Source: Candidatus Cloacimonadota bacterium | GTDB lineage: Bacteria; Cloacimonadota; Cloacimonadia; Cloacimonadales; WRIO01 | DNA length: 62,938 nucleotides | Direction of reading: 5' to 3' | Assembly: GCA_029553545.1 (NCBI GenBank) | Contig: JAKPKU010000237.1 | Coordinates: 1-62,938, forward strand | The notes under the pieces: model-generated | Databases searched by the model: none | What the model was told of the DNA's origin: nothing | The model's input: the letters and a program-made list of their open reading frames with translations, nothing else | Shown here: one piece after another, positions 125-28,242 of the stretch | Position numbering within the stretch: position 1 is the stretch's first letter | How the letters are laid out: each line of letters opens with the position of its first letter | Made by a program: the position numbers and the translations under genes

Positions 125-1687
125 CTAATTCAAAGCTCTCAGGTTTTGAATGTATTGACACATTTGAATTTCATCTTTTTTATCTGTTAAGACTATCAGA
201 TAATCTCCACCAAACATTTGGGTGTTTCCTTTTGGAATAATCTCTTGATGCCCTCTACGAATGCCCACAAGTAAACATGACTTTGGCCACTCTACGTCCA
301 TAATTCTCTTTTGATCGATGCTTGAGCCTAACCTTACAGCTATTTCTAAAATCACTTTATCATGTTTATCTTCAGATAATATATTCTTATTATCTTTAAT
401 AAAACGAGTTAAAAGGGTCTCATAAATTGGCTCAGACCTCATCAGATCAGAGACTAAATAAGCTGTTATAGAAACAACACTTAGAGAAAGCAAGTGGCTA
501 AATGATCCTGTCATCTCTGTTATTAAAAGACTGCCAGTGATAGGAGCTTTAACTATAGCTGTAAAATATCCAGCCATTGCTAATACAATAAAGTTGTTCA
601 AATAAATAGGGTCAATATTTGTTGCCTTTGTTGCAATATAACCATACACATTGCCAATTAAAGCGCCAATGACTATTAAAGGTAAAAAGATACCACCAGG
701 TGCACCACTACCATAGCTGATCATAGTAAAGATAAATTTTACAAACAAAAGTACTAATAGAAACTGAAGAGTCGTACTTTTATGGACGAGATCTATGACT
801 AAATGGTGCCCACCACCTAAAACATCAGGTAAGAAAAAACCTAAGATACCCGCAATAAATATCGGTAAGACTAATTTAAAAGGCTCTGGTAACCATTTGA
901 TACTCTTATAATAATTGAGAGAAAAAATTAGTGATTTGTTAAAAAAAACTCCTGATATACCAATAACTATGCCAAGTAAAACTATGAGCCCGTAATATTT
1001 CAAAGGTAAAATCTCTAAAGCTGACAGATTGAAAACAGGCTGGAAGCCAAAAATAACCTTATTAAAAAAATCTGCTGTTATACAAGCAACAGTAGTGGGG
1101 AGGAGGACAAGGGGAGAGAAATTCTTATGAACTTCTTCTAACACAAAAACTATACCAGCTAATGGTGCGCTAAAAGCCCCTGATAGTCCAGCGCCGGCAC
1201 CTGAACTGATAAGATATTTTTCTTCAATTCTTATACGTTTGAAAATACGACTAACACCTTTACCAATTAAAGCACCCATTTGAACGGAAGGTCCTTCACG
1301 CCCCAGGGATAAACCTGCTCCAATCATCAATGCGCCGTTTATAAACTTATTTACAAGAGTTTTCCACCAACTCATATCAATATGTCCTAATAACTCGCCT
1401 TCAACTTGAGGAATGCCGCTTCCACTAATCATTGGTACTTTCTTTGTGCGATATTTGACAAAAATAGCCACTCCAAAAAGGATCAAAAACCAAAGAGGTA
1501 TAGCCCAATAGTTATTTTTCATATAAGTATAGGCATGATTAGTAAATTTGCCAGCATAGTCAAGCATGATGCGATATGCAACAACAACAATGCCTGCAAT
1601 GAGCCCAACAAGAATAGATTCAAAAACTAATTTCATTTTAATATCTTGCCAATGTCTCATTGTATTTAATAAACTATTTTTTCTCAT
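125..1687 (-). CDS. ClC-type chloride/proton antiporter with C-terminal TrkA_C domain
   Basis: This is a 520-residue inner-membrane ClC protein. Selectivity-filter motifs are visible: GSGIPQVEG (near 89-97), GREGPSVQMGA (near 129), GSGAPGGIFLP (near 327) and AMAGYFTAIVKAPITG (near 373). The gating glutamate of GREGP is present, and so is a glutamate in FVLEEVH at the position of the internal proton glutamate of the E. coli protein. This suggests H+/Cl- exchange rather than a channel. Residues 440-520 form a TrkA_C/RCK_C-like domain (GDYLIVLTDKKDE). The start overlaps the stop of the upstream gene as ATGA. The last four codons and stop come from the adjoining IS end, so the natural C-terminus may have been longer. 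Confidence 0.93.
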   Translation of the reverse strand: MRKNSLLNTMRHWQDIKMKLVFESILVGLIAGIVVVAYRIMLDYAGKFTNHAYTYMKNNYWAIPLWFLILFGVAIFVKYRTKKVPMISGSGIPQVEGELLGHIDMSWWKTLVNKFINGALMIGAGLSLGREGPSVQMGALIGKGVSRIFKRIRIEEKYLISSGAGAGLSGAFSAPLAGIVFVLEEVHKNFSPLVLLPTTVACITADFFNKVIFGFQPVFNLSALEILPLKYYGLIVLLGIVIGISGVFFNKSLIFSLNYYKSIKWLPEPFKLVLPIFIAGILGFFLPDVLGGGHHLVIDLVHKSTTLQFLLVLLFVKFIFTMISYGSGAPGGIFLPLIVIGALIGNVYGYIATKATNIDPIYLNNFIVLAMAGYFTAIVKAPITGSLLITEMTGSFSHLLSLSVVSITAYLVSDLMRSEPIYETLLTRFIKDNKNILSEDKHDKVILEIAVRLGSSIDQKRIMDVEWPKSCLLVGIRRGHQEIIPKGNTQMFGGDYLIVLTDKKDEIQMCQYIQNLRALN

Positions 1688-23220: not shown

Positions 23221-24012
23221 ATGCAAGAAACATTATTTAAATTAAACCCAGAGAATAATATCGTTGCAGCTGCCATACATGCAGGAAGCCATATCAGAAA
23301 AGAACTGGAAGAGATAATAGGCTTAAACAGGAATATTCTTTTGCATGAAGAAGACCCGATGACTGATCATATTGCAATCTTGTTCGACTCTTTTATCATT
23401 CAAAATACAAGCAGGTTTGAATACGATACAAATAGACCTATATCCTCTGCAGTTTATCAAAAGCCACCGGATTGTTGGGGATTAGAAATATATCCAAACC
23501 AAATTGATAGCAAAATGGTGCTTATTTCAGAGAATAAATATCGTGAGTTTTATAAACACATTGATATGTTTTTTAATGAATTGTGCAAAGAACATAAACA
23601 AATATTTGTGTGGGATATACATAGCTTTAATAATAGAGGACGCCCAGATATTAGTCACGAGCATATAGACAATGCAGTGCCTGATATATGTTTGGGCACA
23701 AGCAATACTAACCCGAAGTTTCATGATTTATTTAAGGAAATAGCCAATAATATAGCGAGAGAAGACTATTTAGGAAAAAGACTTTCTGTAGAATTTAACA
23801 ATCCTTTTCCTGGCGGCACTTTTCCAAGGTATTTAAATGCAAACTTTGATGGCAAGGTCGTAGCGTTTACTCTTGAGATCAACAAAAGGATCTTTATGAA
23901 AAGCAATAAGCATCGATTTGATGAGTCTGATGCGATAATTGATTTGCGAGCCTTGGCAAGATTGAGAGAAATCATCCATAACCAAAGCTCGCTTATTAGT
24001 TCAAGTCTTTAA
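23221..24012 (+). CDS. N-formylglutamate amidohydrolase-family protein
   Basis: This 263-residue member of the FGase/HutG family has metal-site motifs AAIHAGSHI (near 18), DTNRP (near 75), VWDIHSFNNRG (near 136) and a late EINKRIFM. The family cleaves N-formylglutamate to glutamate and formate at the end of histidine breakdown, or related N-formyl/N-carbamoyl substrates. hutU lies 22 kb away, so a histidine role is possible but unproven. It ends in a four-base overlap with the convergent pseudogene; its last 25 codons are duplicated at 25626-25703. Confidence 0.75.
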   Translation: MQETLFKLNPENNIVAAAIHAGSHIRKELEEIIGLNRNILLHEEDPMTDHIAILFDSFIIQNTSRFEYDTNRPISSAVYQKPPDCWGLEIYPNQIDSKMVLISENKYREFYKHIDMFFNELCKEHKQIFVWDIHSFNNRGRPDISHEHIDNAVPDICLGTSNTNPKFHDLFKEIANNIAREDYLGKRLSVEFNNPFPGGTFPRYLNANFDGKVVAFTLEINKRIFMKSNKHRFDESDAIIDLRALARLREIIHNQSSLISSSL

Positions 24013-25031
24013 TCTTTTTTACTCTGTCTAATAATAGTTTTTGCAAAGTCAACCAAATACAAATCTATAGGGAAGAATGTTTTATTGATTTCTTTGACAA
24101 AACGTTCTGTTGCGGTCTTAATGCCTTCTTTTATTTTAGCTCTATTCTCCTTTTGATATTCCCTTACTTCTTTTTCAGGCACTTCTTCTTTGGTCTCCCA
24201 AGTAGCGAATATCCCGTCATAATCATTATAATCATAGTCTGTGCTGGGATAATAGCCGTATAAAGAAAGGTTGATTACATAGTCGATATCAGGTTCATAA
24301 AAAAGGTCTTTAACATTAAATGCCTTACCACCCCAAATTTTGTTCAATTCATCAGCTAACTCTTCAAGAATAGTATGCAACTTCTCTATTTTGAAGTTTT
24401 CTGGTTTTACCAATGCTTTTACTAATTCAACGAACTTTTATTCCAAATCATGCTTTAGTTGCTCTGTTGTTTCACTAAAGTAGTCAGAGAGTTTTCTGAG
24501 ATAAATGTCAACCCGAGTATCGAGGCTGTCATCGTTTGGACGTGTTTTCACTACACCAGGGTTTGATGGCAACTTATACCATTCAAAAGCTTCCATATAC
24601 TTTTCAGTGATTTCTTCGAAATGTTCATTTAACAAGTATCGTTTTATAAAACTAAATGGGTTGTCGACTTTACTATCGTATAAAAGCCTAACAGATTGTT
24701 TAATCTTTATTAATACATCTTCAGAAAGATCCTTAGCGTCAAAATCAGAGATAATATCAAAAAAGTCATAGTCCTCTTCATATTGATCAACGTAAGGCGC
24801 ATAGGTATTGAGATTATTAGACCTTCTTTGCTTTTCTTTTTCTACTTTTTGACGGAGCATTCTTTCTGCTAATTCAGCTTCACTGGGTTCTTTAGTTTCT
24901 TCTTTTTCATTCGCAAACGCACTAAAAAAGCTTCGAATGCCTTCAGCAAGGTTACGGGCTGTTACTTTTTCCACTTCTTCGACTTCTTCGACTTCTTCGT
25001 CGTGTCTTTCATTCAAGTCTTCGTTTTTCAT
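24009..25031 (-). pseudogene. Unknown protein X, copy 1, interrupted by one stop codon
   Basis: This gene is homologous along its length to copy 2 (25706-26773); both share LLNEHF-EIT, EAFEWYKLPSNPGVVK, RPNDDS, KLSDYFSETTE and FYEPDIDYV. After the codons for KHDLE an AAA codon has become TAA (24438-24440), and reading continues in the same frame to the normal stop. Copy 1 also lacks about 20 residues near 50-75 that copy 2 has. The start follows GGAGGATAAC. I recognise no family: an acidic N-terminal segment is followed by an alpha-helical, charged body without signal or membrane helix. Suppression or readthrough cannot be excluded. Confidence 0.85.
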
Positions 25032-25062: not shown

Positions 25063-25093
25063 ATTATAACATATGGTTTGGACACAGTGTGTC
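25063..25093 (-). promoter_or_regulatory. Promoter and palindromic site of gene X, copy 1
   Basis: On the minus strand a TATAAT box (25063-25068) stands 12 bases downstream of a perfect 6+1+6 palindrome, GACACACTGTGTC (25081-25093). The palindrome occupies the -35 area, where no good -35 hexamer exists. This suggests control by a dimeric regulator. Confidence 0.55.
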
Positions 25094-25100
25094 TCAAGTG

Positions 25101-25190
25101 GTAAAAAAGTTGGCATATTTATTCAATTTATTTAAAGACTGCTTGATTACATCTATTAATTCTGTGAGTTACAATACTTTAACATTAGAC
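25101..25190 (-). pseudogene. Decayed tail of a WYL-regulator gene (duplication remnant)
   Basis: The sequence parallels the 3' end of the intact WYL gene (26852-26931): both contain ATCTATTAATTC, then TACTTTAACATT at matching spacing. It is the far end of the unit that was tandemly duplicated together with gene X. Reading frame and stop are no longer intact. Confidence 0.65.
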
Positions 25191-25625
25191 TTTGCATGAG
25201 CAAATTCTTTAAAAAAGTGAGAGTATAAAGATTGCTGCTGTTTCATAATCTCCAAATTACAAATTGAGAAATTATCACTACTTGAAAAATTAGATGATAA
25301 TACAAACCTTTTCTTACCTCATAAAAATTCATAATAAATCTCCTTTACATTTCCTTTAGAATCCTATAAGACTACCGTTCATTCTCCAAGATAGCAAGAG
25401 GAATGTCAACGGATTCATATAGGCATATTACTAATAAATAGACATATACAACAATAGAAAGAGACATGGTGATAAGTAGGGAAATCAGCCCTGATAATAG
25501 GAATATTTATTTTTATTGCCATCTTTAATATTAAAATATGGCTCTTTTCAAAATGTAATTTTCCCAGGCTGTTTTGATTCTCTGTGAAACAGCATCAGAT
25601 TATACAGGTCAACTTCTATCCATTA
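25191..25625. other. Duplication junction region without genes
   Basis: There is no credible gene. It contains the nested-hairpin repeat copy 2 (25341-25423) and a 25-base piece nearly identical to the interior of the GGDEF gene (25596-25620 versus 21098-21122). It lies between the two copies of the duplicated unit. Confidence 0.6.
25341..25423 (+). repeat. Nested-hairpin intergenic repeat, copy 2
   Basis: This copy carries the core CATTCTCCAAGATAGCAAGA followed by GGAATGT. Outer arms GAATCC and GGATTC can pair, as can the inner CATTC(T)CC and GGAATG. It sits at the junction of the tandem duplication. Confidence 0.8.
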
Positions 25626-25703
25626 TTAATTGATTTACGAGCCTTGGCAAGGTTGAAAGAAATCATTCATAATCAAGGCTCGCTTATTAGTTCAAGTCTT
25701 TAA
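25626..25703 (+). pseudogene. Duplicated C-terminal tail of the N-formylglutamate amidohydrolase gene
   Basis: The last 25 codons of 23221-24012 are repeated here with about 90% identity; reading frame and stop are kept (IDLRALARLKEII to SLISSSL). There is no start or upstream part. It marks the edge of the duplicated unit and is convergent with gene X copy 2, just as the parent tail is with copy 1. Confidence 0.9.
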
Positions 25704-25705
25704 TA

Positions 25706-26773
25706 TTATCTACTCTGCTTAACAATAGTTTTTGCAAAGTCAACCAAATGCAAATCGATTGGGAAGAATGTTTTATTGATTTCATTTGCAAAGCGATCAT
25801 ATGCAGTCTTAACTGCATCTTTTATTTTAGCTTTGTTCTCCTTTTGATATTTTCTTACTTCTTCCTCAGTTACTTCTTCTTTACTTTCCCAAGTGCAGAA
25901 TATTCCATCATAATCATTATATTTATAATCTATGTCGGGATAATAGCCGCTTAAAGAAAGATTTACTACGTAGTCAATATCAGGTTCGTAAAATAAGTCT
26001 TTAACACTAAATGCTTTAGCACCCCAAATTTGATTCAATTCATCAGCTAATTCGCCAACAATTGCATGCAATCTTTCTATTTTGAAGTTTTCAGGTTTAA
26101 TGTACGCTTTTAATAATTGAACGAATTTTTTCTCCAAATCATACTTTAGTTTCTCTGTAGTTTCACTAAAGTAATCAGAGAGTTTTCCGAGATAATCATC
26201 TATACGGTTGCTAATACTGTCATCATTTGGGCGTATTTTTACTACACCAGGGTTAGATGGCAGCTTATACCATTCAAAAGCTTCCATATAAGTTTCAGTA
26301 ATCTCTTTGAAATGTTCATTTAACAAGTATTGTTTTACAAAACTAAATGGGTTGTCAATTTTGTAATCATATAAAAGCTTTACAGATTGTTTAATCTTTA
26401 TTGTTACGTCTTCAGAAAGATCCTTAGCATCAATGTTTGAGATAAGCTCTAAAAAGTCATATTTTTCGACATCTTGATCAATATAAGGTGCAAGTATTGT
26501 AAGGTTTTCAGCCTTTCTTTGTTTTTCCTTTTTTGCATTTTTGAAGTTTTCAATGATTTTTTGCTTTTCCTCTTTTGATTTAGGATTAAGCCAGAAGAGA
26601 ATGTTTTTGAGTTCTAATTCTTCTTCATTTAGCTCTCTACCACTGGGTTCTTTAGGTTCTTCTTTTTCATCTGAAAACATACCAAAAAGATTTTGCATGC
26701 CTTCCCAAATATTATTAAGTTTTAGTTCTTCCACTTCTCTGTCGTGTCTTTCATTCAAGTCTTCGTTTTTCAT
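25706..26773 (-). CDS. Unknown protein X, copy 2 (intact)
   Basis: This 355-residue protein of unrecognised family is soluble and highly charged, with an acidic Glu-rich segment at about 10-60, then a helical body with EAFEWYKLPSNPGVVK, YFSETTEKLKYDLEKKF and FYEPDIDYVVNLSLSGYYP. It has no signal or membrane segment. The start at 26773 follows GGAGGATAAC; the frame is open 22 codons further upstream through the promoter, which is unlikely to be translated. It stands downstream of a WYL regulator whose 3' end adjoins its promoter. The diverged copy 1 is a pseudogene. Confidence 0.75.
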   Translation of the reverse strand: MKNEDLNERHDREVEELKLNNIWEGMQNLFGMFSDEKEEPKEPSGRELNEEELELKNILFWLNPKSKEEKQKIIENFKNAKKEKQRKAENLTILAPYIDQDVEKYDFLELISNIDAKDLSEDVTIKIKQSVKLLYDYKIDNPFSFVKQYLLNEHFKEITETYMEAFEWYKLPSNPGVVKIRPNDDSISNRIDDYLGKLSDYFSETTEKLKYDLEKKFVQLLKAYIKPENFKIERLHAIVGELADELNQIWGAKAFSVKDLFYEPDIDYVVNLSLSGYYPDIDYKYNDYDGIFCTWESKEEVTEEEVRKYQKENKAKIKDAVKTAYDRFANEINKTFFPIDLHLVDFAKTIVKQSR

Positions 26774-26804
26774 GTTATCCTCCATTTTGATTTTTATGGG
26801 CTGG

Positions 26805-26835
26805 ATTATAACATATGGTTTGGACAGAGTGTGTC
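26805..26835 (-). promoter_or_regulatory. Promoter and palindromic site of gene X, copy 2
   Basis: TATAAT (26805-26810 on the minus strand) is preceded by GACACACTCTGTC (26823-26835), an imperfect version of the palindrome before copy 1. There is no -35 consensus at normal spacing. A regulator-dependent promoter is likely; the WYL protein encoded just upstream is the obvious candidate, which is inference. Confidence 0.55.
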
Positions 26836-26851: not shown

Positions 26852-27826
26852 TTAGTATAATTCGTTTATTTCTTTTAAGGGCTTTTTTATTTCATCTATT
26901 AATTCTTGAGGCTCTAATACTTTAACATTTGCGCCATATGATAAAACATATTTCTTTATTTCATTTATGGAGGTTGCTGGTATTTGTAATAAGACTTTAC
27001 CATCATCGAGTAATTTGACTTTTTGTTTTGGGTGCCAAATGCGCTCTTTGATGTAAGCTGCAATCTTTTCAGAGAAAAGCAGTTTAACTTGAAATGGCTT
27101 TCCCGCATATATACCAAAGGAATCTTCAAAGAATTTTTGTGCATTAAACTCAACATTGTCTCTTGGTTCGGAAACAATCTCTGTGCTACGCATACGGTTT
27201 ATGGCATATATAAGAATTGCTTTTCTCTCTTTAGAAAAGGCTGCAATATAGATATTATTCTCATGAATCTTTAGGCATAATACGGTTACCAAGTGTTCTT
27301 TTTCGGTATTGGATAAGACACTATTATATTTAAAATACAATTTTTTACCTTGTATTAGAGACTGTAAAATCTTTTTCAAGTTTTTACTTTCTTCTTGGTT
27401 CCATACAATTGTTGATTTGGTATCTGGCAGAATTGAGTTCCATACCTTTTGATAGAATTTTAATAATTCTGGAGAAGATTGGCTATGCATCTTGTCAAAA
27501 CAGTTTTTTACTACATCATCAAAGTAGCTTTGTAAAGGATGTGCACTCTTAAACATAAATAACAAAGTTAAAAACTCTTCTTGATTAAAGCTTATAGATG
27601 GGAATCTATAATGTGGGAGCATTTTGTAAATAACTTGGTTGTTCTGACTAATGTTTTCAGAATAAATAGGAAAAGATAAAGAAGAAAGATATGAAATATC
27701 ACGCTGAATTGTTTTTTTAGATACCCCTCTTTCCCTTGCAAGAGTACTTAAGGAGATTCCTCTATTGGCATGAGCATAAATACTCTGCAAAATGCACCAC
27801 TGCCTAAAAAAGCTTTTTTCTTCCAT
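26852..27826 (-). CDS. HTH-WYL transcriptional regulator
   Basis: This 324-residue protein has an N-terminal winged helix (LSTLARERGVSKKTIQRDIS, near 25-45) and a WYL-type domain at about 150-240 (KKLYFKYNSV, IYIAAFSKERKAILIYAINRM). A WCX-like C-terminal dimer region follows. WYL proteins respond to ligands, often nucleotides, and control defence, repair or metabolic genes. It starts two bases after the LRAT-like gene's stop and is the last gene of the nine-gene run; the unknown gene X follows with its own promoter. Confidence 0.88.
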   Translation of the reverse strand: MEEKSFFRQWCILQSIYAHANRGISLSTLARERGVSKKTIQRDISYLSSLSFPIYSENISQNNQVIYKMLPHYRFPSISFNQEEFLTLLFMFKSAHPLQSYFDDVVKNCFDKMHSQSSPELLKFYQKVWNSILPDTKSTIVWNQEESKNLKKILQSLIQGKKLYFKYNSVLSNTEKEHLVTVLCLKIHENNIYIAAFSKERKAILIYAINRMRSTEIVSEPRDNVEFNAQKFFEDSFGIYAGKPFQVKLLFSEKIAAYIKERIWHPKQKVKLLDDGKVLLQIPATSINEIKKYVLSYGANVKVLEPQELIDEIKKPLKEINELY

Positions 27827-27828
27827 GC

Positions 27829-28242
27829 TTACTTCATAAACGTACAGTTCTGAGCAAACTTATAACCATCTGCATTCCTAAAAAGCTGGACTTTCTTTTT
27901 ACCTATATAAAGTTGAGCATTTTTCACTATTTGCTCAGGTCTATTAATCTGTTGTTTTTCTTTCTCATTGTATAATCGAACTTCAACATTGCCCCCATTT
28001 AAAAATTCAGAAAGAGATGATACAATGATCTCTTGTCTAAGCCCGATTTTTGTAGTTGAAAAATGGATTACTTCATCATCATTTACATAAATACCATGAT
28101 TGTAATATGGCGTAAAGGTATCCCATCTTTTTACCCTGATGTGGTCTCCAAACTTTGGGTTATCATATTTCCATTGGCTTTTATTTTTAAATAACGAAAA
28201 ACCTTGTACACCCAAATCTGGCACATTATTCTTACTTTTCAT
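27829..28242 (-). CDS. LRAT-like (NlpC/P60 superfamily) protein, short
   Basis: This 137-residue protein has the circularly permuted papain-like layout of LRAT domains: first His in YYNHGIYVNDDEVIHFS (near 46) and the catalytic Cys in QNCTFMK, third residue block from the end. Typical members continue NCEHF plus 20 or more residues; here the gene stops four residues after the Cys. Activity is therefore uncertain. LRAT-type proteins act as acyltransferases or thiol peptidases. It sits between the efflux adaptor and the WYL regulator in one operon. No signal peptide is seen. Confidence 0.7.
   Translation of the reverse strand: MKSKNNVPDLGVQGFSLFKNKSQWKYDNPKFGDHIRVKRWDTFTPYYNHGIYVNDDEVIHFSTTKIGLRQEIIVSSLSEFLNGGNVEVRLYNEKEKQQINRPEQIVKNAQLYIGKKKVQLFRNADGYKFAQNCTFMK

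What the first reader, a model, noticed from the sequence alone, without database searches (positions are those of the whole stretch)
25063..26835. Palindrome in the -35 position of both gene X promoters
Copy 1 has the perfect palindrome GACACACTGTGTC and copy 2 the near-palindrome GACACACTCTGTC, each 12 bases upstream of a TATAAT box and with no -35 hexamer. A WYL regulator gene ends right beside it. WYL proteins often control defence or stress genes, so the regulator plus unknown protein X may form a small uncharacterised module.
Basis: partly seen in the sequence, partly recalled or inferred. Interest (0 to 1): 0.6.

Follow-up and report, generated by a model that had tools for sequence, protein, structure and literature searches.

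The report
WYL-regulator promoters of gene X
In a little-known bacterial phylum, gene X is driven by an unusual promoter whose missing recognition box is replaced by a conserved site that a neighbouring stress-sensing regulator most likely binds to switch it on, and relatives of that regulator sit beside the same kind of promoter in front of other defence-like genes.

Summary
Copy 1 has GACACACTGTGTC and copy 2 GACACACTCTGTC, each 12 nt upstream of TATAAT on the minus strand, 16 bp past the end of a WYL regulator gene. The two copies come from one tandem duplication, so they are not independent, and copy 1 of X carries a stop codon. The palindrome alone is no rarer than chance.

Comparison across Cloacimonadota carries the case. 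X sits beside an orthologous WYL gene in all three genomes where it was found. All four X promoters read GAC[A/C]-N5-TGTCCA-N10-TAT[A/C][AG]T. More distant WYL orthologues sit beside other cargo (dynamin GTPases, LRAT, AAA, GIY-YIG, patatin-dynamin). In six such clusters, operons begin with the same proximal half, TGTCCA-N10-TATNAT. There the distal half is CCCC, so the conserved unit is TGTCCA plus the -10 box, not the palindrome. It matches the mycobacterial PafBC promoter tTGTCRgtg-8-TannnT in bases and spacing, and the regulator's closest solved relatives are DriD, then PafBC.

Best explanation: a DriD/PafBC-type WYL activator binds at the -35 position and recruits RNA polymerase to X. Its ligand is unknown (single-stranded DNA by analogy). 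X is an all-helical orphan of unknown function. Binding, activation and induction are inferred, not shown.

The parts
26823..26835 (-). Palindrome-like operator in the -35 position of X copy 2: GACA-CACTC-TGTC
   Evidence: arms GACA/TGTC kept in G001 (GACA-TAGCT-TGTC) and as GACC-TAATC-TGTC in G005
26821..26826 (-). Proximal half-site TGTCCA, invariant in all 14 aligned promoters (selected on in 10 of them)
26805..26810 (-). -10 box TATAAT of X copy 2 (TATNAT in most relatives), 10 nt after TGTCCA; TGN extension present in this genus
25081..25093 (-). Palindrome GACACACTGTGTC in the -35 position of X copy 1
25063..25068 (-). -10 box TATAAT of X copy 1
25706..26773 (-). Gene X, intact copy 2, 355 aa, predicted mostly helical, no known family; GGAGG ribosome site at 26779-26783
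24009..25031 (-). Gene X, copy 1, interrupted by TAA at 24438-24440; the part after the stop still shows dN/dS about 0.20
26852..27826 (-). WYL regulator, 324 aa, wHTH-3-helix bundle-WYL-WCX; closest solved structures DriD, then PafBC
27829..28242 (-). LRAT-fold protein (137 aa) directly upstream of WYL, probably co-transcribed; LRAT genes recur beside WYL orthologues
25094..25186 (-). Decayed remnant of the WYL 3' end from the tandem duplication
25627..25703 (+). Remnant of the N-formylglutamate amidohydrolase 3' end from the tandem duplication

Best explanation
The element is a regulator-dependent promoter. The WYL protein encoded next door, a DriD/PafBC-type transcription activator, binds the TGTCCA half-site (in X promoters extended to the pseudo-palindrome GACA-N5-TGTCCA) in place of a -35 hexamer. 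It holds the housekeeping RNA polymerase, which uses only the TATNAT -10 box, and so switches on X when its WYL domain binds a ligand, by analogy single-stranded or damaged nucleic acid. X is probably a stress or defence effector of a WYL-controlled locus whose cargo differs between lineages. Shown by sequence: gene pair, promoter anatomy, fixed spacing, constraint, recurrence in WYL clusters, relationship of the regulator to DriD. Inferred: binding, activation rather than repression, ligand, function of X.
For: Fixed anatomy GAC[AC]-N5-TGTCCA-N10-TAT[AC][AG]T before every X: two copies here, G001, G005. The promoter is under constraint: 37/38 identity between the copies against about 55% neutral expectation, and TGTCCAAACCATATGTTATARTYCWGCC is kept in G001 although synonymous sites are saturated. 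The same half-site and spacing stand before the operons beside WYL orthologues in 6 further genomes, up to three times in one cluster. Genome-wide, 9 of 39 exact matches in 12 WYL-bearing genomes fall in the short WYL-cluster stretches (0.25 expected, P about 9e-12). The extended motif occurs 18 times in 125 genomes, 10 of these in WYL clusters, against 3 for the reversed control. In this genome most other matches lie inside genes and only the X promoters fit well. The recognition helix is nearly unchanged across orthologues. Closest solved structures are DriD, then PafBC, ahead of CapW and BrxR. Literature: PafBC consensus tTGTCRgtg-8 nt-TannnT (PMC5656591), i.e. TGTC then 12 nt then TAnnnT as here; DriD sites overlap poor -35 elements at a fixed distance from -10 (PMC12340889); SiwR binds a 19-bp imperfect palindrome before its neighbour gene and activates it (PMC10693628).
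Against: No binding or expression data exist for this organism. In this genus the -10 has a TG extension, which can work without a -35 and an activator. The promoter scan can also read TTGAGA-18-TATGTT here. In three more divergent WYL clusters (G004, G083, G098) no clear copy of the motif was found. In ten of the 14 aligned sites TGTCCA and the -10 were search criteria, so their invariance there is partly built in. CapW also binds ssDNA yet is a repressor, so family resemblance does not settle the sign of regulation. Gene conversion could contribute to promoter identity between the copies.
Confidence: 0.6

Rival explanations
1. The WYL protein is a repressor of the BrxR/CapW kind: it sits on the palindrome, blocks RNA polymerase and is released by a signal such as phage infection or DNA damage.
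For: BrxR and CapW are WYL repressors linked to phage defence (PMC9122601, PMC9122588) and match the WYL model structurally. The neighbours of WYL orthologues look defence-like. The TG-extended -10 in this genus could fire without activation.
Against: The half-site is at one fixed distance from the -10 in 14 promoters, as activators that replace the -35 require; repressor sites usually vary in position. No -35 hexamer is present. DriD and PafBC are closer than BrxR and CapW by sequence and fold.
Confidence: 0.2
2. The element is a constrained promoter of X, but it is bound by another regulator or by a lineage-specific sigma factor; WYL is only a neighbour.
For: In this genus the whole spacer AAACCATATGT is conserved as well, more than a half-site needs. 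G042 has the promoter before a cluster gene with no WYL detected. No binding evidence.
Against: Genomes with WYL carry the extended motif in their WYL clusters and genomes without WYL show only scattered, chance-level matches. G042 is about 80% complete, so its WYL may be missing from the assembly. A sigma factor would have many genomic targets; only X promoters fit well in G000, G001 and G005.
Confidence: 0.15
3. The palindrome is a chance feature carried along by the duplication, without regulatory meaning.
For: Perfect 13-base palindromes are as common here as in shuffled sequence; the two copies are a duplication; the distal arm is not kept outside X promoters.
Against: The element resists change against a synonymous divergence of 0.68 and is conserved in G001 and G005.
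Confidence: 0.05

Closest known systems
PafBC of mycobacteria and the RecA-NDp promoter (tTGTCRgtg-8 nt-TannnT)
   Same: WYL activator; TGTC half-site 12 nt upstream of a TAnnnT -10 box, no -35 hexamer
   Different: PafBC is a heterodimer of two genes and controls a broad DNA-repair regulon; here one WYL gene and a local regulon; C instead of R after TGTC
DriD of Caulobacter crescentus
   Same: Closest solved relative; wHTH-3HB-WYL-WCX; pseudo-palindromic site overlapping a poor -35 at a fixed distance from -10
   Different: DriD acts on several scattered DNA-damage genes; here only the adjacent locus; ligand not tested
SiwR of Mycobacterium smegmatis
   Same: Single WYL activator controlling the adjacent genes through an imperfect palindrome between the -35 and -10 regions
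   Different: Targets are DinB/YfiT-like genes; here an orphan helical protein, and in relatives dynamin/LRAT/AAA cargo
BrxR and CapW (WYL repressors of BREX and CBASS)
   Same: WYL regulator beside defence-type genes with palindromic operators
   Different: They are repressors and more distant in sequence and fold

Membership tests
DriD/PafBC-type WYL activators | wHTH, helical linker, WYL and WCX domains in one chain | tested here: met
   Pfam HTH_11, WYL, WCX; model order wHTH-3 helices-WYL-WCX
DriD/PafBC-type WYL activators | Closer to DriD/PafBC than to repressor WYL proteins | tested here: met
   Only DriD chains found by sequence; Foldseek ranks DriD, PafBC, then CapW/BrxR
DriD/PafBC-type WYL activators | Site in the -35 position at fixed distance from -10, with poor -35 hexamer | tested here: met
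DriD/PafBC-type WYL activators | WYL domain binds single-stranded nucleic acid through conserved arginines | tested here: inconclusive
   R211 (of A208-x-N210-R211) and R262 invariant across orthologues, but the first Arg of DriD's RLDRM is Ala here; binding not testable
DriD/PafBC-type WYL activators | Activates transcription | not testable with these tools
   No expression data
PafBC | tTGTCRgtg-8 nt-TannnT promoter | tested here: met
   Core TGTC and 12-nt spacing to TAnnnT met; R position is C
PafBC | Heterodimer of two WYL proteins | tested here: not met
   A single matching WYL gene at E <= 1e-10 in this genome and no second WYL at the locus
PafBC / DriD DNA-damage regulon | Sites upstream of scattered DNA-repair genes | tested here: not met
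   Good matches in G000, G001 and G005 are the X promoters; others mostly lie inside genes
Known defence systems (PADLOC) | X matches a known defence protein | tested here: not met
   Best hit LeoBC E=0.53

The most novel reading that the evidence does not exclude
Cloacimonadota carry a family of DriD/PafBC-type WYL activators used as a portable switch for exchangeable, membrane-centred defence clusters (dynamins, LRAT, patatin-dynamin, AAA, GIY-YIG, X). Operons of a cluster are marked by the same promoter, TGTCCA-N10-TATNAT, so that DNA-damage-like signals from phage infection turn the cluster on by activation instead of by relief of repression. X would be a new helical effector of this kind.
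Probability: 0.35. Interest if true: 0.75.

Novelty: new variant of a known kind. Interest (0 to 1): 0.55.

Why it matters
WYL activators that replace the -35 element are known in depth from Caulobacter and mycobacteria, as regulators of DNA-repair genes; the WYL regulators known beside phage-defence genes are repressors. A third lineage with the same promoter geometry, tied to a local, cargo-swapping, defence-like locus, would join the two and give a short DNA tag (TGTCCA-N10-TATNAT) for finding such loci and their unknown effectors, X among them.

Tried and rejected
Relatives of X in genome contigs, IMG/VR, phage and plasmid records: none beyond the three Cloacimonadota genomes. X in Pfam, NCBIfam, PADLOC, PHROGs and PDB sequences: nothing credible. 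X model too weak (pLDDT 56.5) for its fold matches to mean anything. X as a GTPase-free dynamin stalk: profile comparison gave probability 0.7%, rejected. WYL relatives in viral contigs: none. The pattern CNNNTGTCCA... was set at a wrong offset and is ignored. Other near-palindromes in the genome (C9, C20) lie in a repeat array and inside a gene, not at promoters. No paper on WYL in Cloacimonadota or on WYL with dynamin/LRAT loci was found in the library.

Full report
WHAT IS THERE. The window is a contig of a Cloacimonadota genome; the same-genus relative G001 is the record JAJBBH010000075.1, titled Candidatus Cloacimonadota. On the minus strand the order is: outer-membrane and efflux genes, HlyD, LRAT-fold gene (27829-28242), WYL regulator (26852-27826), X copy 2 (25706-26773), X copy 1 (24009-25031), which meets an N-formylglutamate amidohydrolase gene on the other strand. 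Both X copies begin with the stated element: GACACACTSTGTC, 12 nt, TATAAT, then GGAGG and ATG.

DUPLICATION. The two X copies belong to one tandem duplication that took the 3' end of the amidohydrolase gene, X and the 3' end of WYL (remnants at 25094-25186 and 25627-25703). Copy 1 has an in-frame TAA (24438-24440). dN/dS between the copies is 0.24, and 0.20 after the stop, with dS 0.68: both were under selection for long and the stop looks recent.

IS THE PALINDROME MORE THAN CHANCE? As a palindrome, no: 36 perfect 6+1+6 palindromes in the window, about 32 in shuffles. As a conserved element, yes: 37 of 38 bases from CACTTGAG to TATAAT are identical between the copies, against about 55% expected for neutral sites (P about 6e-9). 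Gene conversion could add to this. It cannot explain G001, where TGTCCAAACCATATGTTATAGT is kept although synonymous sites are saturated.

RELATIVES OF X. X was found in 3 of 125 genomes of the class: here, G001 (about 40% identity) and G005 of another family (21%, E=4e-8 in direct comparison). Two marginal partial matches (G026, G119) are disregarded. In all three the orthologous WYL gene is adjacent. In G005 the order is X then WYL on one strand, which would give self-regulation if they share the X promoter, followed by dynamin-type GTPases and a HerA-like ATPase. The promoters read GACA-CACTG-TGTC, GACA-CACTC-TGTC, GACA-TAGCT-TGTC and GACC-TAATC-TGTC, each followed by 12 nt and TATAAT, TATAAT, TATAGT or TATCAT. 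The centre varies and the arms stay. A contig end of G005 carries a near-identical copy of this promoter with one base less in the spacer.

WYL FAMILY. Orthologues occur in 13 of 107 genomes of the order (G100 is a weak match). They sit beside exchangeable cargo: dynamin GTPases, LRAT proteins, AAA ATPases resembling IetA, GIY-YIG-like proteins, a patatin-dynamin fusion, TerB. Operons in six of these clusters (G037, G049, G068, G051, G028, G052) start with [AG]CCCCT[GA][AT]T[CT]TGTCCA-N10-TA[TC]NNT, up to three per cluster. The proximal TGTCCA and its distance to the -10 are the same as before X; the distal arm is different. In ten of the 14 sites TGTCCA and the -10 were search criteria, so the independent support is the location, the flanking conservation (C at -7 in 14/14, T at -2 in 13/14) and the enrichment: 9 of 39 genome-wide exact matches in the cluster stretches against 0.25 expected. 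With the extended motif, 10 of 18 matches in 125 genomes lie in WYL clusters and the reversed control gives 3. One further match (G042) precedes a homologue of a cluster gene in a genome with no detected WYL. In G004, G083 and G098 no clear site was seen.

REGULATOR. Pfam gives HTH_11, WYL and WCX. The only solved relatives found by sequence are DriD chains. The model (pLDDT 76.7) shows wHTH, three helices, WYL, WCX and matches DriD best, then PafBC, then CapW and BrxR; whole-chain TM-scores are low because the domain arrangement differs, while the C-terminal part matches DriD at TM 0.8 of the target. An arginine of the WYL loop (R211) is invariant, but the first arginine of the DriD motif is alanine here, so ssDNA as ligand is only an analogy.

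MECHANISM. PafBC promoters are tTGTCRgtg-8-TannnT (PMC5656591): TGTC, 12 nt, TAnnnT, the geometry seen here. PafBC inserts between promoter and sigma domain 4 (PMC11804915). DriD binds a 20-bp pseudo-palindrome over a poor -35 at fixed distance from -10 (PMC12340889). SiwR activates its neighbour through a 19-bp imperfect palindrome (PMC10693628). The simplest reading is that this WYL protein does the same for X. Steps shown by sequence: anatomy, constraint, co-occurrence, relationship of the regulator. Steps inferred: binding, sign of regulation, ligand, function of X. Against it: a TG-extended -10 in this genus, and an alternative reading TTGAGA-18-TATGTT that relatives do not keep.

X ITSELF. 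No family, no fold match; predicted helical. A dynamin-stalk origin was tested and not supported.

VERDICT.

Noticed in passing
L102:1501-1522 (-) and 223-1458 (-), own genome contig C44: TTGTCCA-N10-TATACT lies 43 bp upstream of a Card1-type CARF nuclease gene; it lacks the C at -7 and may be chance, but is a candidate second target of the WYL protein.
   Followed up: partly
L012:2300-2998 and L013:1473-1859 (own genome contigs C9 and C20): Arrays of GTGTGTTATAGTGAGTTGT-like repeats giving low-complexity reading frames (NTLQRTF...); one near-palindrome falls in such an array.
   Followed up: no
L081, L083, L084, L089: WYL-led clusters with several dynamin GTPases, LRAT, AAA (IetA-like), glycine-zipper, GIY-YIG-like and HerA-like proteins; they look like undescribed defence or membrane-stress loci.
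   Followed up: partly
L082:3417-5972 (+): Fusion of a patatin phospholipase with a dynamin GTPase directly downstream of a WYL orthologue.
   Followed up: no
L083:2208 (-), L084:2825 and 3524 (-): Promoters of this type followed by a conserved leader (GATGGATTYGGCACGG...CCGGCCTG, imperfect) before the start codon; perhaps a second control element.
   Followed up: no
L047:1400-1585 (contig end in G005): Near-identical second copy of the G005 X promoter and N-terminus with one base less in the spacer; strain variant or assembly fork.
   Followed up: partly
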